From an uncultured Phycisphaerales bacterium (GTDB lineage: Bacteria > Planctomycetota > Phycisphaerae > WQYP01): DNA of 11,305 nt. A program made the translations under genes and the position numbers. Below, in pieces: positions 715 to 11,280 of the stretch (position 1 is the first letter of the stretch; each line of letters begins with the position of its first letter). Where the stretch lies: positions 1 through 11,305 of the forward strand of contig CAIPTQ010000238.1 in NCBI GenBank assembly GCA_903868035.1. Reading direction: 5' to 3'. A model generated the notes under the pieces. That model saw only the letters and a program-made list of their open reading frames with translations. It made no database searches and was not told the origin of the DNA.

Positions 715-745
715 TCGAAAATCAAACATCAAAAATTCGAAAATC
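715..745. repeat. Pair of TCGAAAATC direct repeats in an AT-rich patch
   Basis: TCGAAAATC occurs at 715-723 and 737-745, 22 bp apart (about two helical turns), with an AAAATC-like ATCAAACATCAAAAAT spacer. This is the only AT-rich patch in the gap and lies 50-80 bases upstream of the sigma factor start. It could be a regulator site or the footprint of a dispersed AATCGAAAATC-type repeat. Confidence 0.45.
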
Positions 746-782
746 CGCGCGCCCTCCGCCCCCGTCCGTCGTTATCCCTATT

Positions 783-799
783 AAAGGAGGCTCCGCTTG
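783..799 (+). promoter_or_regulatory. Strong ribosome binding site that fixes a TTG start
   Basis: AAAGGAGG at 783-790 is a near-perfect Shine-Dalgarno sequence, six bases ahead of the TTG at 797-799. No in-frame ATG or GTG lies in a comparable position, so this site decides the start of the sigma factor gene. Confidence 0.85.
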
Positions 800-1534
800 G
801 CCGACACCGACCTGCCGACCCTCGTGGCACGGGCTCAAAAAGGCGACCGTGCCGCGTTTGAGAGCATCGTGCATTGCACCGCCCGGCTGGTGTACGCGCA
901 GATCGTGGCCTCCGTGCGCGACCGCCACCAGGCCGAGGACCTCTCCCAGGAGACCTTCCTCGCCGCCTGGAAGCATATCGCCGACCTGCGCTCCCACGAC
1001 CGCGCCGGCGCCATCACCTGGCTCCTCACCCTCGCCCGCAACAAAGTCCTCGACGCCCTGAAGTTTGATGCCCGAAAAAAACGCGGCGGCATTGGCCCGG
1101 GAGATACCACTGCCGCCGCCCAAATATCCCCAGTGGTGCCAAAAGTGGTGCCGACGCCCTCGTCGGCTTCGCACGTGAGCAACCACCCCCATGCGGCCCC
1201 CGCGCCCTCGTCGGCCTCGCACGTGAGCAACCACCCCCATGCGGCCCCCGCACCCGCTTCGCACGACCCCGCCGACCTCCCCGACCGCGCACCCTCCCCC
1301 GACCAGGCCGCCCTGCGCCACGAGGCCCAGGATCACGCCCTGCGGCTGCTGGAGGAACTCCCCGACGAGTACCGCCAGCCCCTGGCCATGCGCTACCTCG
1401 CCGGCGCCGACTATCACGCCATCCGCGCCGCGCTCGACCTCTCCGACGGCGCACTCCGCGGCCTCCTCAACCGTGGCATGGCCCTCCTCCGCGAACGCAT
1501 GTCGCGCCAGAATGAAGACAAGGTGACACGATGA
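797..1534 (+). CDS. ECF-type RNA polymerase sigma factor with extended repeat-bearing linker
   Basis: A 245-residue sigma-70 family (extracytoplasmic function) protein that should redirect RNA polymerase to a specific promoter set. Region 2 spans about residues 17-90 (DRAAFESIV, then QAEDLSQETFLAAWKHI and AITWLLTLARNKVLDALK, typical of regions 2.1-2.4). Region 4 spans about 178-236 (LEELPDEYRQPLAMRYLAG, then a helix-turn-helix around DYHAIRAALDLSDGALRGLLNRG). The linker between them is about 85 residues, longer than usual for ECF factors, and is Pro/Ala/Ser/His-rich with a 16-residue segment present twice. TTG start with strong ribosome binding site. The gene overlaps the next by ATGA and is followed by a zinc-finger anti-sigma gene, so it is very probably held inactive by that protein. 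The family is certain; the ECF group and target promoters are not visible. Confidence 0.93.
   Translation: MADTDLPTLVARAQKGDRAAFESIVHCTARLVYAQIVASVRDRHQAEDLSQETFLAAWKHIADLRSHDRAGAITWLLTLARNKVLDALKFDARKKRGGIGPGDTTAAAQISPVVPKVVPTPSSASHVSNHPHAAPAPSSASHVSNHPHAAPAPASHDPADLPDRAPSPDQAALRHEAQDHALRLLEELPDEYRQPLAMRYLAGADYHAIRAALDLSDGALRGLLNRGMALLRERMSRQNEDKVTR
1157..1252 (+). repeat. Tandem 48-bp duplication inside the sigma factor linker
   Basis: Units 1157-1204 and 1205-1252 are directly adjacent and differ at only two bases, both silent (GCT/GCC and GCG/GCA). Each encodes PSSASHVSNHPHAAPA (residues 121-136 and 137-152). The sequence after unit 2 (PASH, from 1253) looks like the start of a decayed third copy. 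The in-frame length and near identity point to a recent duplication in a flexible linker. Confidence 0.95.
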
Positions 1535-1935
1535 CCCAAAATCCCCAACACCATCATGCGGTTATTCCATGGTTGGCCACTCTCCTCCTGGTGGGGTGCG
1601 TGTTCCTGCTGGCGGTCGCGCCCGCGCTTTTTGCCCAAGACCAGCCTGTGGCCACCCGTGCCGTTCAATCGCACACCGAGTGGTTGGCGGGCATCGTGAA
1701 GCAGACCGGCGCACTCAAGCCCGGCATCTCGCGCCAGGATTTCGAGAACACCTTCCACCGCGACGGCGGCATCAGCGGCCTTGAGGCGCAGCGTTATTGC
1801 CATCGCGACTGCCCCTACATCAAGGTGGACGTGGCGTTTACCGTGGCGAAGGATTCCCAAACGCCGTTTACCGATCCCGACGCGAAACTCACAAAAATCT
1901 CCAAACCTTATCTTGAAACACCGTACCGAGACTGA
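1531..1935 (+). CDS. Small exported protein of unknown function in the sigma operon
   Basis: A 134-residue protein whose ATG overlaps the sigma factor stop (ATGA), so translation is probably coupled. Residues 13-35 form a hydrophobic signal peptide or anchor (WLATLLLVGCVFLLAVAPALFA), with possible cleavage after A35. The exported part has a conserved-looking core: KPGISRQDFENTFHRDGG (63-80), then a Cys pair in YCHRDCPYIKVDVAF (89-103), then LTKISKPYLE near the end. I recall the same order (KPG-hydrophobic-R, GG, CPYIKVDV, KISKPYLE) in uncharacterised acidobacterial and other proteins, but can name no family with a known role. Its place between sigma and anti-sigma suggests an envelope partner or modulator of the pathway; that is inference. 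Confidence 0.8.
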   Translation: MTQNPQHHHAVIPWLATLLLVGCVFLLAVAPALFAQDQPVATRAVQSHTEWLAGIVKQTGALKPGISRQDFENTFHRDGGISGLEAQRYCHRDCPYIKVDVAFTVAKDSQTPFTDPDAKLTKISKPYLETPYRD

Positions 1936-1939
1936 CCCT

Positions 1940-1984
1940 ATGAACCTGTCCCTGAACTCCAAACTTTGGGAGGATATTCAATGA
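1940..1984 (+). other. Possible 14-residue leader ORF upstream of the anti-sigma gene
   Basis: ATG at 1940 opens a frame encoding MNLSLNSKLWEDIQ, whose TGA (1982-1984) overlaps the ATG of the large gene at 1981-1983. The ribosome binding site of the large gene lies inside it, so translation of the leader could couple to or expose that site. The leader has no good ribosome binding site of its own, so it may equally be chance. Confidence 0.25.
1968..1983 (+). promoter_or_regulatory. Ribosome binding site setting the anti-sigma start at 1981
   Basis: GGGAGG at 1968-1973 lies seven bases before ATG 1981. A TTG at 1966, in the same frame, would place the start inside this site, so ATG 1981 is preferred. 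Confidence 0.8.
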
Positions 1985-4900
1985 AAGAACTCACCGGCGA
2001 TCACGCCTTCGTTCACGAACACATGGCCGCCTATCTCGCCGGCGGGCTGGAGGCGGGGGTGCGGGAGCAGTTCGACGCGCACATCAACAACTGCCCGGAA
2101 TGCTTTGACGCGTTTTCCGAGGCGCGCGACGCCGACCGCGCCCTCCAGCGCACGCTGGGCACATTTGTCCCTGACGCCAAGCTCGAAGACCACATCATTT
2201 CTCATGTACGGGAGCATTTTATGAATCGCTGGCAACACCCTGTCCTCCGCCGCGCCGCCTATGCCACCGCCGCCGCCATCGCCCTGGCCGCCTCCGGCGT
2301 CTTCGCCAACTTCGCCATGCGCCAGGATGGTAGGTTCAATAATCCGCTGACGCGCCAACTGGCGGCACAGGCGGACAGCGCGGCACCCGAGTTGGCCAGG
2401 CCGGCGGATTGGGTGGCGGCGAAGTTCAGCTTCAACCACAAATCCGCGGCAGGCGCAACGGTGAACACAGAGAAGCATTACGCCATGAACTACGTCGATG
2501 CGCGTCTGGATGACATACTGTCCGACTTTGGTAAAACCTTCGGTTTCATTGTCGTCAAGAATGTTCAAACCCCGCAACGCGTCACGATACAGAATCCCAA
2601 TCCCGTCACTGCCGACGAGGCGGTGCAACTACTCAATTCCGCACTCCTGACCCAGGGATATGGCACCATCCAGTCCAAGACTGACAACACGCCCAACGCC
2701 AAAACCATTCTCCGCATCGCGAGCATTCAGGAAGCCAAAAAATCCCTGATACCCGTACGGACGGGCGCCGATCCAAGTGACATTCCTTTGAGCGACAGCA
2801 TCATTACGCAAGTGATCCCGCTGAAGAACGTGGATGCGGCGAGTTTGCGGAAGGATCTGGCATCTTTTATCAGTTCCGACGCTGACGTGACGGTCAATGC
2901 CGGCTCCAACACCCTGGTAGTCACGGACACTTCCGCCAAGATACATCGTTTAGCCGAGGTCATCCAAAGTCTTGACAGCCAGAGGTCGATCAAGACCGTC
3001 ATCGAATACCGGCAACTGACTAATGCCAACGCCGGCGAGGCCGCCAAGCTGCTCAACGGCATGTTTAGCCCCCCCAGCGGTGCGCGCGGCGGTAGCGGCG
3101 GCGCTGGTGCAGGGCCAAATGGCCGTCTCTACGCCGACTTCGATGCACGCACGAATACCGTGGTCCTCAACGGCCCGGCGGACCAGACGGCCCAGGCCGT
3201 GGACATGCTCAACCGCCTCGAAAGCATCCCCATGGATGTCGCTGCCAAGTCATTCCTGGCCAAGTCCGACCCCGCGCAATCCGCGCAGCAAGGCGGACAG
3301 CCATCCCAATCCAACGACACGTTCTTTATCCAGCATCTCAAGAACGGACCCGCCCAAACGCCGCCGCAAAGCGTCGGCACGGGCGTCCTGGCCTACAACG
3401 AGAAAAGTGGCCCGCTCGACCGCATGGATAAAATCACATCCACCAACGGCGACGACATGGGTTTCCAGTTTGGCGTCAACGGGAATCAGCGCGCCGGCGT
3501 GGACGCCAACGGCAACGCCGTCGCTTCAGGGGGCGCCGCCTCCGCCAACGATGGCAAGCTCGGCACCGTCGCCAATGCCGGCGATAATTACATAAAACGC
3601 GCCATCCCCACCCCCATCAACGGGATCAGCACCAGCTCCGGCAACATCATCCAAGCAGAACGCTACAGCACAGTCGTGACCGACACGAACAGCAAACAGG
3701 TGGCAAACTCAGACCGCTGGGTTGGTGGCGTAACCAGTTCCAACGTCAATGCTCCTACCTTTGCCGCACGCCAGGAAGATGCACCCGCTGCCGCAGATAA
3801 ACTAAACGAGAGCAAGACCGATGGACTCAAAGGGGCATATGACGTCCTCTTGGCTCCCACCGTCCACGCCACCGTACGCGATGACACCAAGTCTGGAACT
3901 GCCGAAGATACAAAACTTACACCCACCGCGGTCGCCCCCGGCAAGTTCAGCGATCAGGGGACATTTTTGTCGCTGACCGACGAGGCCCGCTTGTCCACCG
4001 AAGAACGTGCCGCCAAAGCCAAAAACGAAGAACCCGCCAAACTCGCCGCCGCTGACCCGAATGGACCCATCGCCATCATCAACGGCCAGCCCGTGAATCA
4101 AGCGGCAGGCGATAAGCTCCTTGCAAGCCTGTCCCAAGCGAACAATTCAACCGATCATCTGATTCCGTATGCCGACCTGTTGGTCTCTCCCACAGACTGG
4201 CCCGAGATTCAACGCACCGGCACCGTCGCCGATGGCACCGCCGCACCATCCGGCGGCCTCCTCACCAATCCCACCCTGGGCGCACGATATAAAATCCCCG
4301 ACTCCTCCGCCGCATCGACCAACTACACCCCCGCCAAGAATGGCCAAAATGTCGGCTTCGGCGACGCCCATGCGGAATTTTACACCTACTGGTACAACAT
4401 CACCGACCTGGGCGTGTTGTATGACAAAAAGGTCGGCGATCCCAAAATCAACATCGCCGACAGCGCCAACGTCGGCATGACCCAGATCGCCTGGAGCGAC
4501 CCCACGCTGCTGGCCGCCGTCACACCGGTCGCGCCCGCCACCCCCCCCACCGCCACCGGCACCGCCCTGACGCGCCCGGCCGCCCCAATGGTTGACCCCG
4601 CGGCAAGCCTGAAAATCATCCGCAACGGCACCATCGAATTCGAAGTCCTCTCCTTTGATGACGCCTACCGGCGCATCACCACCATCGCCGCCGCCGAGCG
4701 CGGCTTTGTGGCCTCGACCTCCTCCCAAAAACTGGCCAACGGCCATGTGCGCGGCACCATCGTCGTGCGCGTGCCGCCCGACAACGTGGACGACTTCCTG
4801 AAATCCCTGCGCGCCCTGGGCGACCTCAAGGCCCAGCAGATCGGTGCCGCCGACGTCACCAAGCAATACAATGACATTGAATCCGAACTCCGCGGGCTGG

Positions 4901-7005
4901 TCGTCATCGAAGCCCGGATTCAGGAACTCATCAAGGTCGGCAATCCCCTCAAGGACCTCATCGAAGCCGAAAAACAACTCGGCGACGTGCAAATCCGCAT
5001 CGAAAAACTCAAGGGCGAAATCAACTACTACAACAACCTCGTCACCCTCGCCACCATCACCATCACCGCCTACGAAAAGGACATCCAGTCCCCCACCGCC
5101 GCCAGCGAGCAGGAGAGCGTCAACGTCAACGTGGAGACCGAGGAAGTCGAGGCCAAGTACAAATCCGCCCGCGAAATCTTCGACACCGCCAAGGCCCGCA
5201 TCGTCGAAAGCCAGTTGAAAAACTCGGATGCCGAGCACGTGGCGGCACACATCGTCGCCGACGTGCCCCCGGCCCAGGCGGACTTTGTGGCCAACCAGCT
5301 CAAGCAACTCGGGAAGGTCGCCTCGTTCAACCGCGACCGCCGCCAAACCACCACCGGCGGCACCGGCGCGCCGATCCCCGGCGTCCAGGTGGAACAAAAA
5401 GACACCCGCTTCACCATCGACCTGTTCAACCTCGCCAACCTGGCCCCGCGCGAAACCACGGTGTTGCAGGTGGCCGTGCGCGATGTGGAGATCAGTTATA
5501 AGAATATTCTGGCCCTCGTGAAGCCGGTGCCGGCGGCCATGCCGGATGGTGTGCCCGCGAGCCAGCCGGCGGGGGCGGCGGCACTTACCGGCCGGGTCAT
5601 CTCCTCCAATCTCAGCGGCCAACTGCCCGAACAGAAACGGGCGGATATTCGGGCCGAGGTGCGAACCGACAATGCGGATGCGATCTTAGGGGCGTTGCGG
5701 GCCTCGGGCGAAGTGCTCGCCAGCTCGCTCAACACCAACCAGGACAACGCGGGCACGACCTCCGCCAAGCGCGGAATTCAGGTGACGCTGGTGAACATCG
5801 CCTCCGTGGGTGCCAAGGACATCGACAACATCACCATTGCCGTGCGCGACGTGGACGCGGCATACAACAAGGCGCTGGGCCTCATCCGCAAGGATGCCCC
5901 CGCTCCCGCCGTGGGTGCCGGCGTGCCCGCGGGCGTGGCGCTGCTCCCGCCCACCGTGGGCCGTGTTCTGTCGGCAAGCATGAACGGCCAGCAGCCCGTG
6001 CAGGCCGCGGCGGACATCCGGGCCGAGATTCGCGTGGACCTCGCGGCGGAACTGCTGGCCACGCTGCGCGCTTCGGGCGAAATTCTCAACAGCACCGCCA
6101 CGGAAAACCCCGAGACGCTCAACGTCACCCGCGCCAAGCGCGGCCTCTCGCTCCGCTTCGTCAACGTCGCGGCCATCAACCCCCGCGAAAACCAGGAACT
6201 CCACGGCGTGGCGGCGAATGTCGCCGACTCCTACCGCAACCTGCTGGTGGCGCTCCAGGACCTGGCGCTCAAGGGGGATGTGCGGATATTAAATTCGAGC
6301 CTGACCGACACCGACCCGCGCACCGTGAACGCCAACCTGCGTTTCGAGGCCCAGAAGACCGCCGTGGATGCCGTCGAAAAGGCGTTCACCGCCGCGGGGC
6401 TGGAATTTCCGGCGCGGATGACCACGCGCGCCCCGGAGAGTTCGGGAACGTTGGACTCCAAGGTCGGCTACCAGATCACCGAAATCAAGGCCGTCGAGAT
6501 GCTCGACCCCAAACGCATCATCACCCAGGGCGTCGAAGTGGATAATGTCGAACGCGCCGTCGGCCGCCTCCGCTCCTCCCTCACCGGCCTGGGCGTCAAG
6601 GTCCGCGAATCCGACTACAACGTCACCCACGACGCCACCACCGGCCGCGTCACCGCCCATATCATTTTAGATACATACGTGAGCGCCACCAACACCGTCC
6701 TCAACGACATCGACAACCTCGGCGGCCTCCAGAAAAACTACCAGGAAACCCGCAACGCCCAGGCCCCCGAAACCAAGACCTTCACCAAGGAACGCATCGA
6801 CCTCCAGCTCACCAGCCGCTCGCTGATCGTCCAGCCCGACCAGGGCCTCGGCTCCTCCTTCCGCGCCGCCCTCACCTCCGCCGCCGGCGCCCTGTTCCTG
6901 GCCCTCTACTACATCCTCACCGGCCTGCTCTTCCTCGTCCCCTTCACCATCATCGTCTGGCCCATCTGGACGCTCCACAAGCGGCGCAAGACCCGCGCCC
7001 AATAG
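1981..7005 (+). CDS. Giant mosaic transmembrane anti-sigma factor: zinc finger, secretin-N-like domains, DUF4349 and repeats
   Basis: A 1674-residue protein encoded directly after an ECF sigma factor. Residues 8-60 are a zinc-binding anti-sigma domain (zf-HC2/ZAS): H34-x3-C38-x2-C41 with His12 as the likely fourth ligand. A membrane helix follows at about 92-113, putting the rest outside the cytoplasm. About 167-247 resembles a secretin/TonB short N-domain (YVDARLDDILSDFGKTFGFIV). About 273-332 is a secretin N1-like domain (ITQVIPLKNVDAASLRKDL, then NTLVVTDTSAKIHRLAEVIQ). About 338-418 is a second one with a Gly-rich loop. Residues 420-875 are low-complexity, with a pseudopilin-like NGQNVGFGDAHAEFY at 787-801. 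DUF4349 spans 877-1034 (IIRNGTIEFEV, ADVTKQYNDIESELRGL, a coiled coil, then YYNNLVTLATITITAYE). About five repeats fill 1071-1618. A C-terminal membrane helix at about 1631-1662 ends in a basic tail. Binding and inhibition of the adjacent sigma factor is the expected role; the ligand sensed is unknown. Ordinary zf-HC2 anti-sigma proteins are a fraction of this length. Confidence 0.88.
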   Translation: MKELTGDHAFVHEHMAAYLAGGLEAGVREQFDAHINNCPECFDAFSEARDADRALQRTLGTFVPDAKLEDHIISHVREHFMNRWQHPVLRRAAYATAAAIALAASGVFANFAMRQDGRFNNPLTRQLAAQADSAAPELARPADWVAAKFSFNHKSAAGATVNTEKHYAMNYVDARLDDILSDFGKTFGFIVVKNVQTPQRVTIQNPNPVTADEAVQLLNSALLTQGYGTIQSKTDNTPNAKTILRIASIQEAKKSLIPVRTGADPSDIPLSDSIITQVIPLKNVDAASLRKDLASFISSDADVTVNAGSNTLVVTDTSAKIHRLAEVIQSLDSQRSIKTVIEYRQLTNANAGEAAKLLNGMFSPPSGARGGSGGAGAGPNGRLYADFDARTNTVVLNGPADQTAQAVDMLNRLESIPMDVAAKSFLAKSDPAQSAQQGGQPSQSNDTFFIQHLKNGPAQTPPQSVGTGVLAYNEKSGPLDRMDKITSTNGDDMGFQFGVNGNQRAGVDANGNAVASGGAASANDGKLGTVANAGDNYIKRAIPTPINGISTSSGNIIQAERYSTVVTDTNSKQVANSDRWVGGVTSSNVNAPTFAARQEDAPAAADKLNESKTDGLKGAYDVLLAPTVHATVRDDTKSGTAEDTKLTPTAVAPGKFSDQGTFLSLTDEARLSTEERAAKAKNEEPAKLAAADPNGPIAIINGQPVNQAAGDKLLASLSQANNSTDHLIPYADLLVSPTDWPEIQRTGTVADGTAAPSGGLLTNPTLGARYKIPDSSAASTNYTPAKNGQNVGFGDAHAEFYTYWYNITDLGVLYDKKVGDPKINIADSANVGMTQIAWSDPTLLAAVTPVAPATPPTATGTALTRPAAPMVDPAASLKIIRNGTIEFEVLSFDDAYRRITTIAAAERGFVASTSSQKLANGHVRGTIVVRVPPDNVDDFLKSLRALGDLKAQQIGAADVTKQYNDIESELRGLVVIEARIQELIKVGNPLKDLIEAEKQLGDVQIRIEKLKGEINYYNNLVTLATITITAYEKDIQSPTAASEQESVNVNVETEEVEAKYKSAREIFDTAKARIVESQLKNSDAEHVAAHIVADVPPAQADFVANQLKQLGKVASFNRDRRQTTTGGTGAPIPGVQVEQKDTRFTIDLFNLANLAPRETTVLQVAVRDVEISYKNILALVKPVPAAMPDGVPASQPAGAAALTGRVISSNLSGQLPEQKRADIRAEVRTDNADAILGALRASGEVLASSLNTNQDNAGTTSAKRGIQVTLVNIASVGAKDIDNITIAVRDVDAAYNKALGLIRKDAPAPAVGAGVPAGVALLPPTVGRVLSASMNGQQPVQAAADIRAEIRVDLAAELLATLRASGEILNSTATENPETLNVTRAKRGLSLRFVNVAAINPRENQELHGVAANVADSYRNLLVALQDLALKGDVRILNSSLTDTDPRTVNANLRFEAQKTAVDAVEKAFTAAGLEFPARMTTRAPESSGTLDSKVGYQITEIKAVEMLDPKRIITQGVEVDNVERAVGRLRSSLTGLGVKVRESDYNVTHDATTGRVTAHIILDTYVSATNTVLNDIDNLGGLQKNYQETRNAQAPETKTFTKERIDLQLTSRSLIVQPDQGLGSSFRAALTSAAGALFLALYYILTGLLFLVPFTIIVWPIWTLHKRRKTRAQ
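4339..4383 (+). other. Pseudopilin-like (H-X9-DG-like) motif coding segment
   Basis: This stretch of the giant gene encodes NGQNVGFGDAHAEFY (residues 787-801), preceded by a TNYTPAK segment. It resembles the C-terminal GQNVLFGDGHVEF signature of planctomycete-type pseudopilins (DUF1559/H-X9-DG proteins). Gly is replaced by Ala after the Asp, and Tyr stands where the upstream His is expected, so it looks like a degenerate or borrowed copy. Confidence 0.4.
5191..6834 (+). repeat. Five diverged tandem protein repeats downstream of DUF4349
   Basis: Within the giant protein, units of about 105-110 residues recur at about 1071-1181, 1202-1306, 1325-1428, 1430-1534 and 1539-1618. Units 2 and 3 are clearest: RVISSNLSG/RVLSASMNG, then ADIRAEVR/ADIRAEIR, LRASGEVL/LRASGEIL, AKRGIQVTLVN/AKRGLSLRFVN, and a closing IAVRDVDAAY/VAANVADSY. 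Units 1, 4 and 5 keep the pattern at lower similarity. The strand-helix-LRASGEVL core also matches the DUF4349 segment TIVVRVPPDNVDDFLKSLRA, implying internal duplication of that domain's fold. Confidence 0.7.
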
Positions 7006-7014
7006 CTCCGACCT

Positions 7015-7047
7015 GTGTCCGGTGCGCGGTTAACGCGTGCCGGACAC
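7015..7047. terminator. Long perfect-ended hairpin after the sigma/anti-sigma operon
   Basis: GTGTCCGG (7015-7022) and CCGGACAC (7040-7047) pair perfectly. TG/TG pairs as two G-U wobbles, CGCG pairs with CGCG, and the loop is GTTAA: a 14-bp stem starting ten bases past the stop codon. There is no T-run on either side, so it is either a terminator without a U-tract or an mRNA 3' end stabiliser. Confidence 0.55.
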
Positions 7048-7119
7048 GCTCCGCGGCGCGTCTAAATCGTGCCCGGCGCTCGTTGCGCACGCCCCAAAAA
7101 CGTCCCCATACGCGCATTT

Positions 7120-7149
7120 TTGGTGCCGCCCCCCCCGGCGCTGTATAAT
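7120..7149 (+). promoter_or_regulatory. Sigma70-type promoter of ppk2
   Basis: A perfect -10 box TATAAT (7144-7149) follows a TTGGTG -35-like hexamer (7120-7125) by 18 bases. Transcription would start near 7156, giving a leader of about 28 bases with AGGAG (7173-7177) ahead of ATG 7184. Its layout matches the panD promoter (TTGGTnCCGCC followed by GCGC before the -10). Confidence 0.7.
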
Positions 7150-7183
7150 CCCCCCCACTTCATTTCCCCCTCAGGAGTCCCTT

Positions 7184-8029
7184 ATGGTCAAACGCAAGGA
7201 CTTCGACCACCTGCTCGTCCCCCCTGGCAAAAAGTACCGCCTCGCCCGCGTCCCGCCCGATTCCACCAAGCACGTCCCCCCGCGCGACAAGGCCGACGCC
7301 GCCACGCAAAAAGCCGTCGAAAAACTGGGCATTTTGCAGGATAATCTCTATGCCGAGGGCCGCCGTTCGCTGCTGGTGATCCTCCAGGGTATGGACGCCT
7401 CCGGCAAGGACGGCGCGGTGCGCAAAATTTTTGACGCCGTCAATCCCACCGGCGTCCGCGTCTTCAGCTTCAAGCAACCTTCCGCCGAGGAACTCCGGCA
7501 TGACTTCCTGTGGCGCTGCCACGAAAAAGTCCCCCCGCGCGGCGACATCGGCGTCTTCAACCGCTCGTATTACGAGGACGTCCTGATCGTCCGCGTCCAT
7601 GCCGACCGCCTGCTGGCGCCCGAGCTGCTTGACAACAAGGCCGAATGGGCCCGCCGTTACCGCATGATCACTGAATTTGAGAGCGTGCTGGGCGACGCGG
7701 GCACCCGCGTGCTCAAGTTCTTCCTGCACATCTCCAAGGAGGAGCAGCGCAAGCGCTTCATGGCCCGCCAGAAGGATCCGACCAAGCACTGGAAACTCGC
7801 CGCCGCCGACTTTGCCGAGCGCCAGTTCTGGGACGACTACCAGGACGCCTACGAAAAAATGCTCCCCGCGACCAGCACCGCCGCCGCGCCCTGGTACATC
7901 ATTCCCGCCGACCACAAATGGGTGCGTAATTATTACCTCGCGCACCTGCTGGTCGCCGCGCTGCAGGAAATGAACCCCAAACCCCCCGAGCTGGCCGACC
8001 AATCGCTGATCACCAAGCGGTTCAAGTAA
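7184..8029 (+). CDS. ppk2: Polyphosphate:nucleotide phosphotransferase, PPK2 family (class III-like)
   Basis: A 281-residue P-loop kinase that transfers phosphate between inorganic polyphosphate and nucleoside mono- or diphosphates in the cytoplasm, linking polyphosphate stores to ATP/GTP supply. Walker A is GMDASGKDG at residues 69-77. The Walker B-like segment is FNRSYYEDVL at 125-134. The lid module KRFMARQKDPTKHWKL starts at 190 and is followed by the helix AERQFWDDYQDAYEKML. The GMDASGKDG form (rather than GRDAAGKGG) and the single-domain length fit class III enzymes, which in characterised cases act on both AMP and ADP; class assignment here is by motif only. The frame is open upstream to 7037, but that extension runs through the promoter. 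ATG 7184 with AGGAG at 7173-7177 and an MVKRKDF start is preferred. It is probably a single-gene transcript. Confidence 0.93.
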   Translation: MVKRKDFDHLLVPPGKKYRLARVPPDSTKHVPPRDKADAATQKAVEKLGILQDNLYAEGRRSLLVILQGMDASGKDGAVRKIFDAVNPTGVRVFSFKQPSAEELRHDFLWRCHEKVPPRGDIGVFNRSYYEDVLIVRVHADRLLAPELLDNKAEWARRYRMITEFESVLGDAGTRVLKFFLHISKEEQRKRFMARQKDPTKHWKLAAADFAERQFWDDYQDAYEKMLPATSTAAAPWYIIPADHKWVRNYYLAHLLVAALQEMNPKPPELADQSLITKRFK

Positions 8030-8084: not shown

Positions 8085-8113
8085 TTGGTCCCGCCGCATC
8101 CGCGCCATACAAT
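8085..8113 (+). promoter_or_regulatory. Sigma70-type promoter of panD
   Basis: TTGGTC (8085-8090) and TACAAT (8108-8113) are separated by exactly 17 bases. Transcription would start near 8120 and give a leader of about 40 bases. The same TTGGTnCCGCC followed by a GCGC-containing spacer is seen at the ppk2 promoter. Confidence 0.65.
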
Positions 8114-8126
8114 AGATTCCGACCCT

Positions 8127-8139
8127 GCGGAAATTCCGC
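8127..8139. promoter_or_regulatory. Perfect 13-bp dyad in the panD leader, possible operator
   Basis: GCGGAA-A-TTCCGC (8127-8139) is a perfect inverted repeat about 14 bases downstream of the -10 box and ten bases before the ribosome binding site. The position suits a repressor operator. It is also short enough to be chance. Confidence 0.35.
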
Positions 8140-8148
8140 GTTTATTTC

Positions 8149-8162
8149 AGGAGCGTCCCATT
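8149..8162 (+). promoter_or_regulatory. Ribosome binding site supporting an ATT start for panD
   Basis: AGGAG (8149-8153) lies six bases before ATT 8160-8162. The only other start-like codon in frame nearby is TTG at 8172, 18 bases from this site and without one of its own. No in-frame ATG or GTG exists between the promoter and the conserved core. Confidence 0.7.
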
Positions 8163-8537
8163 CACACCAAGTTGCTAAAGGCGAAAATCCACCATGCCGT
8201 AGTCACGCAAACCGACCCGAGCTACCACGGCTCGATCACGATTGATGCGGATTTGCTGCGGGCCACGGGCCTGCATCCCAACGAACAGGTATTGGTGGCG
8301 GACTGCGAGAACGGGAACCGATTTGAAACGTATATCATTCCCGGCGCGGCGGCGTCGGGGATCATCGGGATCAACGGCGCGGCGGCACGGCTGTCGAAGG
8401 TGGGCAACCGGGTGATTGTAATGGCGTTTGTGTCTTTGGCGGAGAAGGAGATTGCAGCGCACGTCGCCCGGATCGTGGTGTGCGACCAGGCGAATAAAAT
8501 CAGCGAACGGATCGAGCAAAAATCGACGCTGGGCTAA
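8160..8537 (+). CDS. panD: Aspartate 1-decarboxylase (PanD), apparent ATT start
   Basis: Decarboxylates L-aspartate to beta-alanine for pantothenate and coenzyme A synthesis; a pyruvoyl enzyme made as a proenzyme that cleaves itself at Gly24-Ser25. Counting from ATT 8160 as residue 1, the protein is 125 residues, close to the 126 of E. coli PanD, and all key positions fall on the E. coli numbers: Lys9 and His11 (KIH), Tyr22, Gly24-Ser25 (SYHGSITID), Arg54, Thr57 and Tyr58 (NRFETY), and Asn72 (GIIGINGAAA). No ATG or GTG is available upstream; the frame opens at a TTG that is the -35 box. The alternative start, TTG 8172, would remove four residues and has no ribosome binding site. It has its own promoter and is convergent with the pil operon, overlapping its last stop codon by four bases. 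Function is near certain; the start codon is likely but unproven. Confidence 0.95.
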   Translation: MHTKLLKAKIHHAVVTQTDPSYHGSITIDADLLRATGLHPNEQVLVADCENGNRFETYIIPGAAASGIIGINGAAARLSKVGNRVIVMAFVSLAEKEIAAHVARIVVCDQANKISERIEQKSTLG

Positions 8538-9169
8538 TTTTTATTCAGGCGGGGCTGCATGGACAGTTCGATCGTGGGGCCGCCGGGGGAGTCCACGTGC
8601 TGCAGCGTGACGCCATCGTTGCGGATTTTCAGGACGCGGGCGCCGGCGACAACATCGCCGACCTTGACGATTTTGCCGTTGATGACGGCCATGTCGCTGT
8701 TGACGATGGTGGCGAGTTTGAAATCCTCGACGCGGAGGCTGAGCGCTGGTACGCCGGGGATGGTGGCGGGAGGGGGCGTGCTGGAACTGCGGGTGGCGGC
8801 GGGTTGGGGGGGGTGACTGCCAAGGTCTTTGAGCCAGGCGTCGGACATGGCGAAGGGATTGCGCGGGACGGCAGCGAGGGAGTGGTCGCCGCGGAGATCC
8901 TGGCAGAGGAGCGCGGTGGTGGGATCGGCCTTGAGTTCATTCATCATGGCGTCGAGGGCCGCGGGGGAGATTTCATTGGCCAGAACCGGAGGCGCGAGGG
9001 GCGAACCACTGGGCACCGGCGCTCCGGAGGCGGATTGGGGACCAGTGCCGCCCTTGAGGAACTGCAGGGCGACCAGGCCGATGAGGAGCGCGCCCAGTGA
9101 GAGCACGATGACCAGTTTTCTGGATTCGTTGGGCTTGGCGGCGGTTGGATTGCGGTCAAAATCACCCAT
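8534..9169 (-). CDS. PilP/GspC-like type IV pilus or type II secretion inner-membrane protein
   Basis: A 211-residue protein, last gene of the pil operon. It has a short cytoplasmic N-terminus, a membrane helix at about 18-38 (KLVIVLSLGALLIGLVALQF), a Pro/Ser-rich linker, a helical middle (about 65-110) containing an ...AVPRNPFAM... segment, and a second Pro-rich linker. The C-terminal beta-domain (about 144-206) carries INGKIVKVGDVVAGARVLKI and VTLQH, the pattern of the GspC/GspB/PilP periplasmic domain that docks to the secretin. Proteobacterial PilP is a lipoprotein; here a membrane helix replaces the lipobox, as in GspC. ATG 9169 lies two bases after the pilO stop, with GGAG within the end of pilO. 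The role as secretin-linking subunit is inferred from domain shape and gene order. Confidence 0.75.
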   Translation of the reverse strand: MGDFDRNPTAAKPNESRKLVIVLSLGALLIGLVALQFLKGGTGPQSASGAPVPSGSPLAPPVLANEISPAALDAMMNELKADPTTALLCQDLRGDHSLAAVPRNPFAMSDAWLKDLGSHPPQPAATRSSSTPPPATIPGVPALSLRVEDFKLATIVNSDMAVINGKIVKVGDVVAGARVLKIRNDGVTLQHVDSPGGPTIELSMQPRLNKN

Positions 9170-9171
9170 GG

Positions 9172-9723
9172 TTACCGCTCCATGTAAAAGGTGGAAAACT
9201 GGACGGTCAGCGAGCAGTTGACCTTGTCGGAGGCGCGGGCCTTGGCGTCCTTGTCCTGGATGTCGATGGTGGCCGAGTCGAGGCGGGCGATTTGGGACAT
9301 CGCGCGCAGCCCCGCGAGGAATTTGTAGCAGCTATCCCAGTCGCCGCTGCCGACCACGGTGACCTGGACGGTTTTGTAAGCGCCGGCGGACTTGGGGCTG
9401 CCGACGGGGGGCATGTTTTCGATGCGGATGCCCGCGGCCTTGGCGACGTCGGATAGTTCCTTGTTGAAGGCGCTGTCGGGGGGTCCGGAGGCGAGGCGTT
9501 TTTCGGCCTCCTGGATTTGGGTCTGGGCGCGGGCGCTGGCGAGGCGGAGCTGCTCGAGGCGGGCGAGGGAGCCGTTGAGGGCGGCGGTGGCGGTGATGTC
9601 TTCGGCCCCGCTCTTGAGCATGGGGTAGATGCCGAAGGCGGCGGCGCCGGCCAGCAGCAGGACGACGACGGCGATGCCGGCATAGTTGACGATTTTGAGA
9701 GACTGTTTGACTTGTTCGTGCAT
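9172..9723 (-). CDS. pilO: Type IV pilus alignment protein PilO-like
   Basis: A 183-residue bitopic protein of the PilO/GspM type that pairs with PilN in the inner membrane and forms the periplasmic alignment platform. It has a short cytoplasmic start (MHEQVKQSLKIV), a membrane helix at about 13-31, a coiled coil at about 40-80 (LEQLRLASARAQTQIQEAEKRL), and an alpha/beta periplasmic domain at about 95-183 with YKTVQVTVVGSGDWDSCYKF and a final strand SLTVQFSTFYMER. ATG 9723 is chosen because it gives a normal PilO N-terminus and has AGGG upstream. A TTG at 9750, overlapping the pilN stop, would add nine residues and is possible. It sits 23 bases after pilN and two bases before the PilP-like gene. 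Confidence 0.82.
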   Translation of the reverse strand: MHEQVKQSLKIVNYAGIAVVVLLLAGAAAFGIYPMLKSGAEDITATAALNGSLARLEQLRLASARAQTQIQEAEKRLASGPPDSAFNKELSDVAKAAGIRIENMPPVGSPKSAGAYKTVQVTVVGSGDWDSCYKFLAGLRAMSQIARLDSATIDIQDKDAKARASDKVNCSLTVQFSTFYMER

Positions 9724-9746
9724 GGTCAGCCCTGGATAAAAAGCCT

Positions 9747-10331
9747 TCAATTCGCCTTGACGAGGGGTTGTTCGCAGGTGATGTCAAAGGAGGTGACTTC
9801 GCCGTCGAGCAAGGTGGTCAGGTGTTTTTCGCCGAGCGGGACGATGAGGGGGAGACGGGGGGACTTGCCGATCTGGGTGAGGCGTTCGAGGAAGCGGGAG
9901 TGGGAGGTGTCGTTGGCGGTGATGCCGCGGATGCGGACGGAATAACGGGCGTCGGCGGGTTTGACATCGGCGGGGTGGGCCACGACGCGGAGGAATTCGA
10001 GGGAGTCGCTTTCGGCAAAGCCGCCGGAGACGCCGGTGAGCAGGGCGAGGAGCACCTTGTCGCCCTGGAGATCCTCCATCTTTTTCATGCGCCCGGCGAG
10101 GTCGTCGCGGCGGGCGCGGAGATCGTTGTACTCGGTGAGGAAGACGGCGTTGTCCTGGCATTGCCGCGTGAGACGGGCAAACTCGGCGGCCTGCTTGCGC
10201 CGCCACATGTAGGTTTGCAGGAGCGCAACGGCGGCCACGGCCACGGTGATGATGAGCAGGGTGCTCCAGCGGCTGACGAGCGCGGCACGGGCGACGCGGA
10301 TGCGGTATTCAACGGGAATCAGTTCAGCCAT
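9747..10331 (-). CDS. pilN: Type IV pilus alignment protein PilN-like
   Basis: A 194-residue bitopic inner-membrane protein. The N-terminus MAELIPVEYRIRVARA resembles the PilN segment (NLLP/LIP-x-x-Y-R) that binds PilM in the cytoplasm. A membrane helix follows at about 23-41, a coiled coil at about 45-95 (RLTRQCQDNAVFLTEYNDLR, then RRDDLAGRMKKMEDL), and a ferredoxin-like periplasmic fold at about 115-190 (YSVRIRGITANDTSHSRFLE, then SFDITCEQPL). ATG 10331 overlaps the pilM stop by eight bases and has a strong AGGAGG five bases upstream inside pilM, so the two are translationally coupled. The frame extends further upstream, but only as an out-of-frame reading of pilM. Confidence 0.83.
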   Translation of the reverse strand: MAELIPVEYRIRVARAALVSRWSTLLIITVAVAAVALLQTYMWRRKQAAEFARLTRQCQDNAVFLTEYNDLRARRDDLAGRMKKMEDLQGDKVLLALLTGVSGGFAESDSLEFLRVVAHPADVKPADARYSVRIRGITANDTSHSRFLERLTQIGKSPRLPLIVPLGEKHLTTLLDGEVTSFDITCEQPLVKAN

Positions 10332-11280
10332 TGGGACCTCCTGACGGCTGGAGCGCCAGGCCCAGCGCGGCGGCGAAGTGCGTCGCGCCGCCGGCCTGCA
10401 GCGCGGTTCGGATGTCCACGGGGAAAGCCTCCGCCGAAAGCCCATCGAAGGGGGACGGCGCGCGGACCCGCAGATTGAAACGATTGGTGAAATAGTTGGC
10501 GAAGGCCTCGTCCCGGGCGCCGTTGCCGAAGGCGACGATCTCGCCGAGGGAATCGAAGTGGCGGGAGCCGATCATGTGGGAGACGCACTTGGAGATTTCG
10601 TGGCCGATGCGTTCGAGGCCGGCCTGCGCGCCGTTTTTGGGCGCGGGGATGTCGAAGGGGCGCCAGAACAGGACGCGCTGTTTTTCGACGACGGAGAAAT
10701 AGCCCAGCGTGTCGCCCAGCACGACGGTGCCGACGATGGAATCCTGGTCGGGCAGAAGATGGGCGATGAGGCTGGCCAGGGCGCAGGGCGCGACATCCAG
10801 GTGGGTGCAGGCCAGCTTGAGGCGGGTGAAGCCGTCCAGGTACTTGTGAACGACCGCGCGCTGCGAGGCGACGACGAGGACTTCATAGGTGCGGGTTTTG
10901 GGGTCCGGTTCGGAGACGGTCCAGAAATCATAGAGCAGGTCGCGGGGGTCGCAGGTCAGGATGTTCTGGAGGGTCTGCTTGACCTGGTCCTCGGGGGTGC
11001 CCGGCTTGGCCGGATCAATGAGGACGGAGCGCGTGGTGACCAGGCTGGTCGGGATCGCCGCGGCACAGTGGCGGCCGCGCAGGCGGCGGCTGGCGAGGAG
11101 CTTCTCCAGGGCGGCCAGATGGCGCTCGGGCAGGTTGGCGGGGCCGCCCTCGGCCAGCATTTCGCAGGCCACCGCCAGGATGGCGGGCATCCCGCCGCGG
11201 CGCACGGCGACATCGAGGACGCGCACGGCCTCCGGCGCCAGGTCGATCGCCAGGAGGGAATCAGTGGATTTCTTGAACAT
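10324..11280 (-). CDS. pilM: Type IV pilus assembly ATPase-like protein PilM
   Basis: A 318-residue actin-fold protein, first visible gene of the operon, expected at the cytoplasmic face where it binds the PilN N-terminus. Visible landmarks are the phosphate-1 segment LLAIDLAPEAVRVLDVAV (about 9-26), the phosphate-2 strand TVVLGDTLGYFSVVEKQRVL, and the adenosine segment EIVAFGNGARDEAFANYFTN followed by LRVRAPSPFDGL, the usual PilM ending. The glycines normal for PilM phosphate-1 (DIGSSS type) are replaced by LAPEA, so nucleotide binding may be altered. Its length is slightly below the usual 340-350. ATG 11280 has AAGGGTG (complement of 11286-11292) five bases upstream. The promoter is probably beyond the right edge. 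Confidence 0.85.
   Translation of the reverse strand: MFKKSTDSLLAIDLAPEAVRVLDVAVRRGGMPAILAVACEMLAEGGPANLPERHLAALEKLLASRRLRGRHCAAAIPTSLVTTRSVLIDPAKPGTPEDQVKQTLQNILTCDPRDLLYDFWTVSEPDPKTRTYEVLVVASQRAVVHKYLDGFTRLKLACTHLDVAPCALASLIAHLLPDQDSIVGTVVLGDTLGYFSVVEKQRVLFWRPFDIPAPKNGAQAGLERIGHEISKCVSHMIGSRHFDSLGEIVAFGNGARDEAFANYFTNRFNLRVRAPSPFDGLSAEAFPVDIRTALQAGGATHFAAALGLALQPSGGPNG

What the first reader, a model, noticed from the sequence alone, without database searches (positions are those of the whole stretch)
1981..7005. A 1674-residue anti-sigma factor that fuses a zinc finger, secretin-N-like domains and DUF4349
The gene after an ECF sigma factor encodes a zf-HC2 domain (H34, C38, C41) and a membrane helix, then an envelope part of about 1500 residues anchored again at the C-terminus. 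The envelope part starts with three domains that look like secretin N0/N1 domains (GspD/PilQ), normally used to build outer-membrane channels. Anti-sigma factors are usually 100-300 residues. A tethered sensor with secretin modules could bind a secretin or secretion substrate and release the sigma factor when the machine is blocked or assembled.
Basis: partly seen in the sequence, partly recalled or inferred. Interest (0 to 1): 0.82.

Follow-up and report, generated by a model that had tools for sequence, protein, structure and literature searches.

The report
Anti-sigma factor carrying secretin vestibule domains
A gene switch protein predicted to sit in a bacterial membrane has taken up a secretion-pore protein and kept intact only the part that normally docks onto the secretion machine, so it may let the cell sense the state of that machine.

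Summary
One intact ORF (1981-7005) encodes a 1674-residue zf-HC2 anti-sigma factor beside an ECF sigma gene, with a membrane helix, GspD N0-N1-N2 domains (residues ~164-416), DUF4349, a rod of beta-alpha-beta domains and a second membrane helix. Pfam, NCBIfam, PDB sequences and a predicted structure agree.

After N2, collinear scraps of the pore domain remain (z 12-13, 0 of 300 shuffles; reversed control 0.1). Three full-length GspDs share a 100/99-100 supported clade with five of the six anti-sigma copies found; the sixth appears to be a separate capture (AU p 0.002, long branch). Six of 29 family members carry N0-N1. The region between helix and DUF4349 is hypervariable and elsewhere holds pieces of a second secretin and of pseudopilins.

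Best mechanism, inferred: N0-N1 is a docking probe for the secretion machine whose engagement controls destruction of the anti-sigma factor, as STN domains do in FecR-type signalling. The main rival is that the insert is a passenger in a fast-evolving spacer: close relatives lack it. No binding or regulation was shown.

The parts
741..776 (+). Promoter-like element upstream of the ECF gene (GCGCG...CGT core shared with relatives); autoregulation is inferred
   Evidence: DNA alignment of 7 hand-chosen upstream regions (L076 and the cut L082 left out): GCGCG and CGT invariant; coordinates. A 33-base version taken from L083, searched in 26 genomes, hit only that same locus
797..1534 (+). ECF sigma factor, 245 aa, TTG start behind AAAGGAGG
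   Evidence: Sigma70_r2 7.2e-12, Sigma70_r4_2 1.2e-5; sigma70-ECF 2.5e-18
1531..1935 (+). 134-aa ORF between sigma and anti-sigma gene, ATGA overlap with the sigma gene; exported by eye
   Evidence: no Pfam family
1981..7005 (+). Anti-sigma factor CDS, 1674 aa
2011..2103 (+). zf-HC2 anti-sigma zinc finger (residues 11-41; H34, C38, C41)
   Evidence: Pfam PF13490 4e-6
2263..2319 (+). First membrane helix (residues 95-113)
   Evidence: hydropathy
2485..2679 (+). GspD N0 domain (169-233)
   Evidence: PF21305 1.3e-5; 3ezj
2806..2988 (+). GspD N1 domain (276-336)
   Evidence: PF03958 6.3e-23
2992..3219 (+). GspD N2 domain (338-413)
   Evidence: PF03958 has two stretches (second not printed); 3ezj alignment to 413; model
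3313..3345 (+). Remnant of the start of N3 (445-455, NDTFFIQHLKN)
   Evidence: alignment to GspD P0037 389-399, 5/11
3430..3555 (+). Pore-domain remnant 1 (484-525), ~ P0037 589-630, 20/42 identical
3673..3783 (+). Pore-domain remnant 2 (565-601; SSNVNAPTF exact), ~ P0037 722-758, 19/37
   Evidence: GspD-profile hit i-E 6.7e-4
3904..3969 (+). GspD C-terminal tail remnant (642-663), ~ P0037 834-855, 12/22
4150..4215 (+). Motif STDHLIPYADLLVSPTDWPEI (724-745) shared with a second, TPR-like secretin
   Evidence: 59-64% identity over 22-27 residues in 3 of the 4 secretin-like hits (the fourth 47% over 39), E 0.002-0.008, ORFs read; marginal for this protein, strong in some relatives
4339..4380 (+). 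H-X9-DG-like motif (787-800, NGQNVGFGDAHAEF) as in pseudopilin C-termini (motif name recalled)
   Evidence: 39% over 59 residues to prepilin-like L090, E 0.0024; marginal
4612..5109 (+). DUF4349 (878-1043): ferredoxin-like with a coiled-coil hairpin in the model (my reading of the secondary structure)
   Evidence: PF14257 4.8e-48; model pLDDT 84
5116..6855 (+). Rod of tandem beta-alpha-beta domains (1046-1625)
   Evidence: predicted structure
6886..6972 (+). C-terminal membrane helix (1636-1664)
   Evidence: hydropathy, helix in model
10324..11280 (-). PilM-like inner-membrane platform gene, converging on the sigma locus (context)
   Evidence: PF11104 2e-10; TIGR01175 1.4e-12
9172..9750 (-). 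GspM/PilO-like gene (context)
   Evidence: NF040576 1.4e-7, 31.3 bits under its cut-off of 60; PilO and T2SSM_b about 6e-4, just under cut-off
8534..9169 (-). Possible GspC/PilP-like gene (context; weak)
   Evidence: NF041515 E 0.017; T2SSB E 0.01, CdsD_C 0.0021

Best explanation
What it is (by sequence; about 0.95 sure): a membrane-spanning zinc-finger anti-sigma factor for the adjacent ECF sigma factor, probably from a planctomycete of the Phycisphaerae (inferred from the titles of related records L001 and L002 and the name of P0014). Between its membrane helix and its conserved DUF4349 stalk it carries a captured GspD. N0-N1-N2 are intact and the pore domain is reduced to scraps. How it works (inferred): residues 1-90 hold the sigma factor. 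In the periplasm the N0-N1 lobe, which in a real secretin docks on the inner-membrane platform (GspC HR domain) and on neighbouring N domains, lets the anti-sigma factor dock on the T2SS/T4P machine or its unassembled GspD. Whether that contact is made decides whether the anti-sigma factor is cut and the sigma factor freed. The anchored rod, held to the membrane by a helix at each end, would keep the probe in the periplasm and could hide or expose the cleavage site.
For: Head, helix, DUF4349 and rod are shared across the family, and an ECF gene lies directly upstream in 8 of 12 context loci, the contig ending there in the other 4. N0-N1 is present in 6 of 29 members and pairwise 31-48% identical (shuffled about 22%), while the rest of the middle is near the shuffled level (22-37% against 24-28%). 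By profile range N0-N1 is kept in 6 of 6 and N2 in 4 of 6 of these, with no pore-domain hit in any. In the window protein N0-N1-N2 is whole while only scraps of the ~490 residues after N2 remain. The donor is a GspD: P0037-P0039 (361, 380 and 350.8 bits for GspD, the last just under the 351.35 cut-off) group with five anti-sigma copies 100/99-100, 56% identity P0001-P0037. Apparently captured twice (AU p 0.002). GspD N0 binds GspC HR (PMC3169554 passages). FecR-type anti-sigma factors use an N0-like STN domain to bind the transducer's STN, and by its title PMC11637429 finds that this contact protects the anti-sigma factor from proteolysis (passages of it and of PMC7186176).
Against: No interaction, cleavage or regulon was shown. 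P0023, sister to N0-N1-bearing P0022 (91% identical core), lacks N0-N1, and so does P0003, sister to P0028; P0003 even keeps a pore scrap without N0-N1-N2. The domain is therefore dispensable. Other members carry other material in the same place. Secretion genes lie near the locus in the window but were found in 0 of 12 other context loci; none of these shows N0-N1 (L084 and L085 lack the front of the gene) and several are short. The separate origin of P0022's copy rests on a long branch and its place beside G001's GspD has only 86/65 support.
Confidence: 0.4

Rival explanations
1. Passenger in a hypervariable spacer. The stretch between the helix and DUF4349 is weakly constrained and picks up and loses in-frame pieces of the cell's own envelope genes. 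Sensing is done by the conserved DUF4349/rod and the two membrane helices; the secretin domains do nothing specific.
For: Middle 34-51% identical where core is 87-96% (the four closest of nine pairs compared: P0015/16, P0018/19, P0014/17, P0022/23). N0-N1 present/absent between sisters. Pieces of a TPR-like secretin in 11 of 39 middles and of pseudopilins in 9 of 39, some from near-identical members; reversed 0 and 0. Pseudopilins are very numerous (up to 86 matches a genome), so random uptake would meet them often.
Against: N0-N1 stays a folded, alignable domain in 6 of 6 carriers while the attached pore is lost. In the unselected NCBIfam scan GspD is the commonest hit outside the anti-sigma models (6 of 29, tied with a coiled-coil model, ASRP, that in P0013 lies on the DUF4349 hairpin), although GspD N0-N1-N2 genes are few (0-5 matches a genome).
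Confidence: 0.36
2. Bait: the ectodomain imitates secretion substrates, pilin ends and secretin parts, so that the working machine or its quality-control protease engages it. Occupancy of the machine is read out as anti-sigma degradation. Here the whole mosaic matters, not N0-N1 alone.
For: Many of the pieces that could be named come from secretins and pseudopilins; one member's TPR-secretin piece is closest to its own genome's secretin (65%, next 55%).
Against: Profiles for the TPR-like secretin and the pseudopilin were built after the motifs had been noticed, so these counts are not unbiased; PATR and Poly_export pieces also occur, and in 19 of 39 middles none of the three profiles hit (counted).
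Confidence: 0.12
3. Assembly or gene-calling artefact: a GspD gene and an anti-sigma gene joined by a misassembly.
For: The window lies in a record for which no whole genome is held; some relatives are visibly truncated or out of frame at one end (P0002 and P0005; P0028).
Against: Six proteins from several sources (ncbi/ena, jgi, ena, window) have N0-N1 before DUF4349, five of them behind a zinc finger, and the pore is eroded in frame rather than cut once.
Confidence: 0.02

Closest known systems
FecR/PupR/FoxR sigma regulators of cell-surface signalling
   Same: Membrane anti-sigma factor with a periplasmic domain of the STN/N0 kind, a fold shared with secretins and TonB transducers (PMC7186176, PMC11637429, passages seen)
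   Different: Those have one C-terminal STN after a beta-solenoid CJM domain and pair with a TonB-dependent transducer. Here three domains N0-N1-N2 derived from GspD itself sit in the middle, followed by DUF4349, a rod and a second helix; the cytoplasmic part is zf-HC2
RsgI anti-sigma-I factors of Clostridium thermocellum
   Same: Conserved cytoplasmic head with divergent sensor modules outside (PMC12203970, passages seen)
   Different: Gram-positive; C-terminal sensors such as carbohydrate-binding modules, a GH10 or a peptidase-like domain; no secretin parts named in the passages seen
GspD, type II secretion secretin
   Same: N0-N1-N2 by sequence and predicted fold; remnants of the pore domain in order
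   Different: No pore-forming domain; membrane helix at each end of the chain instead
Class I zf-HC2 anti-sigma factors (ChrR, RsiW type)
   Same: HX3CX2C finger and ECF neighbour
   Different: Usually short (recalled). Additional domains are reported as typically well conserved within a group (PMC7406223, passages seen), whereas here the ectodomain varies between sisters
DUF4349 proteins
   Same: DUF4349 plus C-terminal membrane helix, as in the Methylobacterium tail-anchored candidate of PMC10924467 (passages seen)
   Different: 'anti-sigma' does not occur in that main text

Membership tests
Class I (zf-HC2) ECF anti-sigma factor | N-terminal zinc finger HX3CX2C | tested here: met
   PF13490 27.2 bits over cut-off 22.2; H34, C38, C41
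Class I (zf-HC2) ECF anti-sigma factor | ECF sigma gene next door | tested here: met
   797-1534, one small ORF between; directly upstream in 8 of 12 context loci, in the other 4 the contig ends there
Class I (zf-HC2) ECF anti-sigma factor | Binds and inhibits that sigma factor | not testable with these tools
   needs two-hybrid or pull-down
GspD secretin | N0-N1-N2 periplasmic domains | tested here: met
GspD secretin | Secretin pore domain (PF00263); whole-protein GspD score | tested here: not met
   No PF00263 in the window protein at E up to 1; GspD model 105 bits against cut-off 351; only scraps remain
FecR/PupR-type sigma regulator | STN/N0-fold domain in the periplasmic part | tested here: met
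   GspD N0
FecR/PupR-type sigma regulator | FecR family domains (FecR, FecR_C) | tested here: not met
   No such Pfam hit in the window protein at E up to 1; FecR_C at 0.009 in 1 of 29 members
FecR/PupR-type sigma regulator | Partner TonB-dependent transducer | not tested
   no whole genome is held for the window
RsgI | RsgI N-terminal anti-sigma-I domain | tested here: not met
   No such family in the Pfam and NCBIfam scans at E up to 1
DUF4349 protein | PF14257 over cut-off | tested here: met
   163.8 bits, cut-off 27.7

The most novel reading that the evidence does not exclude
A second kind of cell-surface signalling: an ECF switch whose anti-sigma factor repeatedly rebuilds its ectodomain from the cell's own secretion-machine genes (GspD N0-N1-N2 apparently twice, a TPR-like secretin, pseudopilins). 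The probe is then always matched to the current machine, and the switch reports its assembly or blockage.
Probability: 0.2. Interest if true: 0.87.

Novelty: new variant of a known kind. Interest (0 to 1): 0.62.

Why it matters
How bacteria monitor type II secretion and pilus machines is, as far as I recall, poorly understood. An anti-sigma factor that has kept the docking half of GspD and shed the pore gives a direct, testable candidate for such a sensor, probably in planctomycetes. The family also shows an anti-sigma ectodomain turning over by uptake of pieces of envelope proteins while head and stalk stay 79-96% identical (four pairs), against the published pattern of conserved accessory domains within anti-sigma groups (PMC7406223, passages). 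As for print: in the listings (20 of 31 papers listed; 6 of 6; 8 of 8) I saw no title or abstract start describing a secretin domain inside an anti-sigma factor apart from the FecR-type cell-surface signalling papers; one search found no paper with both DUF4349 and anti-sigma, two with DUF4349. PMC3467454 on type III secretion and extracytoplasmic stress responses in Yersinia was seen in the listing only. The library lacks most subscription journals.

Tried and rejected
Assembly chimera: disfavoured by six proteins from several sources with N0-N1 before DUF4349. Simple 'N0/N1 module added' reading: replaced by whole-GspD capture with erosion. Chain scores against GspD were also high for P0019, P0035, P0036 and L002, but their reversed controls were about as high, which I put down to Gly-rich sequence, so they are not counted; P0023 (4.6 against 2.5) is unsure. 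P0028 and P0022 show no convincing pore remnants. In one search two reversed middles also reached i-E 0.01 against the GspD profile, so its single hits mean little without the order. The promoter pattern as regulon probe gave only the locus it was taken from, 1 of 26 genomes. Fold search of the DUF4349/rod model gave nothing at E below 0.001; VIA rows were dominated by the coiled-coil hairpin, so no fold name from the PDB is given. No Rfam hit. The first genome-contig scan confirmed no relative; the second gave 6 loci, four of them from Bizionia, Lutibacter (two) and Mucilaginibacter with a lone DUF4349. No whole genome is held for the window, so I could not see its own GspD or sigma regulon. 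The homology searches scored only the ~8000 candidates sharing most words, so 6 of 29 is a sample, not a census.
Full report
Observation. The reading frame 1981-7005 is intact and encodes 1674 residues. Pfam finds zf-HC2 (11-41), the GspD N0 domain (169-233, slightly under its cut-off), Secretin_N in two stretches and DUF4349 (878-1043). NCBIfam finds GspD over 170-416 and an anti-sigma model over 15-132, both below their whole-protein cut-offs, as expected for part of a protein. By sequence the PDB match is the ETEC GspD N0-N1-N2 fragment 3ezj over 164-413, E 6e-11. A model of residues 152-425 (pLDDT 76, pTM 0.41, 12 aligned sequences) has GspD and XcpQ N0-N1-N2 as its first twelve Foldseek matches. 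TM-scores normalised by the query are 0.23-0.40 for those twelve and 0.64 to PulD in the ring, so the fold of each domain is better supported than their arrangement. Two hydrophobic stretches, 95-113 and 1629-1667, suggest that both ends are anchored in the inner membrane; the only two cysteines are in the zinc finger. The model of 862-1674 (pLDDT 84) shows DUF4349 with a coiled-coil hairpin, then tandem beta-alpha-beta domains and a long C-terminal helix; no PDB row reached E 0.001.

Setting. The ECF gene 797-1534 starts at TTG behind AAAGGAGG and overlaps a 134-aa ORF that ends 45 bases before the anti-sigma gene. On the other strand, past PPK2 and panD, a PilM-like, an unassigned, a GspM/PilO-like and a possible GspC/PilP-like gene converge on the locus. 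In 12 context loci of relatives (3.7 to 23.7 kb) the ECF gene lies directly upstream in 8; in the other 4 the contig ends there; none shows a match to the window's four secretion-type genes, PPK2, panD or the 134-aa ORF at E 0.001. None of those 12 shows N0-N1 (two lack the front of the gene), so linkage of N0-N1 with secretion genes is untested.

Family. Two homology searches gave 28 relatives with DUF4349 besides the window protein, 29 in all; zf-HC2 in 27 of 29, Secretin_N in 6 of 29 (E up to 0.05), GspD in 6 of 29. A third search added P0036 and P0041 with DUF4349 and, importantly, GspDs P0037-P0039. Matches to the C-terminal part at E 1e-40 or better occur in 2 of 28 genomes of one order and 9 of 26 of another within the class of L001, a MAG titled Phycisphaerales; in a sample of 397 genomes of the class 68 have some match at E 0.001. 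In a tree of the DUF4349 part (38 rows), N0-N1 presence needs 3 changes, and N0-N1-bearing P0022 and bare P0023 are sisters.

Hypervariable middle. In the four closest of nine pairs the core (DUF4349 to end) is 87-96% identical and the head 79-90%, while the stretch between is 34-51% (pairs P0022/23, P0015/16, P0018/19, P0014/17). P0022 and P0023 aligned end to end show the break directly. Between N0-N1 carriers N0-N1 is 31-48% identical (shuffled about 22%), and what follows is 22-37% (shuffled 24-28%). So N0-N1 is the most conserved thing in the middle of those that have it, but it evolves faster than DUF4349 (63-89%).

Whole-GspD capture. Behind N2 the window protein still holds scraps of the GspD pore domain and C-tail in the right order. 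They are best seen against P0037, a full-length GspD (361 bits): 484-525 (20/42), 565-601 (19/37, with SSNVNAPTF exact), 642-663 (12/22). The chain score exceeds 300 of 300 shuffles in each of two runs (z 11.8 and 13.0), and the reversed target gives z 0.1. P0005 (z 8.1; reversed 2.2), P0003 (6.0; 0.1), P0012 (4.2; 0.3, 1 of 300 shuffles as high) and weakly P0002 (3.9; 2.0) behave likewise; most of the 39 middles do not, and several high scores are matched by their reversed controls. P0003 has no N0-N1-N2 yet keeps a piece like the secretin signature (DIQINGDLPELGKAFKR, 10 of 17 identical to P0039): it seems to have lost what the window protein kept. This counts against an indispensable role.

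Origin. N0-N1 of five anti-sigma proteins and the GspDs P0037-P0039 form one clade (100/100 of 42 rows, P0022 left out; 100/99 of 20 rows; in an earlier tree of 40 rows without P0037-P0039 the five stood together at 91/81). P0001 is 56% identical to P0037 there, 46-49% to P0038 and P0039, and 42-47% to P0006, P0007 and P0010. One clade for the five alone is not rejected (p 0.255); one clade for all six is (p 0.002), with P0022 beside the GspD of G001 at 86/65. P0022 is a long branch, so two captures is likely, not certain.

Other pieces. The motif IPYxDxxxYPxxWPEI in 6 of 29 members belongs to a second, TPR-like secretin (one copy, L087, scored against NCBIfam secretin models only below their cut-offs). 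Profile hits (E 0.01 for 1000 sequences) to that secretin occur in 11 of 39 middles (P0034 at 2e-51), to pseudopilins in 9 of 39 (P0029 at 3e-15), 0 in reversed middles, and 0 and 3 among 243 decoy ORFs. The three decoy hits match the N-terminal pilin part, so I take them for real pilins. Not all 39 are independent (L077 and P0032 are near-identical). These two profiles were chosen after the motifs had been noticed. Unselected library scans show GspD in 6, autotransporter repeats in 3-4 and Poly_export in 1 of 29, and a Secretin hit in P0013 at 0.0011. One member's TPR-secretin piece is 65% identical to its own genome's secretin and at most 55% to others. For the window protein itself the two motifs are marginal (E 0.002-0.008).

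Mechanism. In GspD the N0 domain binds the HR domain of inner-membrane GspC (PMC3169554, passages). In FoxR and PupR an STN domain with the secretin N-domain fold contacts the transducer's STN, and that contact is reported to protect the anti-sigma factor from proteolysis (PMC11637429, PMC7186176, passages). I therefore favour N0-N1 as a docking probe for the T2SS/T4P machine or for unassembled GspD (0.4). The passenger-in-a-spacer reading is almost as likely (0.36), because sisters do without the domain.

Verdict. The new points are that it is a captured, pore-eroded GspD, in a family whose ectodomain turns over quickly. It is a new variant of known kinds (modular anti-sigma ectodomains; STN-type signalling), not a member of the secretins or of FecR.

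Noticed in passing
window 1155-1250: A 48-base unit is tandemly duplicated (98% identical) within the ECF sigma gene, lengthening the linker between regions 2 and 4 with PSSASHVSNHPHAAPA twice.
   Followed up: no
window 1531-1935: Small ORF with HRDGGISGLEAQRYCHRDCPYIKVDVAF between sigma and anti-sigma gene; no Pfam family and no match in the 12 context loci.
   Followed up: partly
L086-L089 (four genomes); related hits in 24 of 26 genomes, (at least one of them the anti-sigma gene that gave the query): A second, TPR-like secretin occurs across this order.
   Followed up: partly
26 genomes of the G050 order: Prepilin-like proteins are very numerous, 4 to 86 matches a genome at E 1e-10.
   Followed up: no
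P0040, P0042, P0044, P0045: Very long proteins (1977-2925 aa) combine Secretin_N with PF23248, PF14611 or PF24471; not examined.
   Followed up: no
G255:C17, G246:C29, G086:C18, G350:C1: Open frames of 4648-4834 aa match the window's N0-N1-N2 at 1e-16 to 1e-20; what these giant proteins are was not examined.
   Followed up: no
window 7037-8029 and 8085-8537: PPK2-family polyphosphate kinase and aspartate decarboxylase (panD) follow the anti-sigma gene.
   Followed up: no
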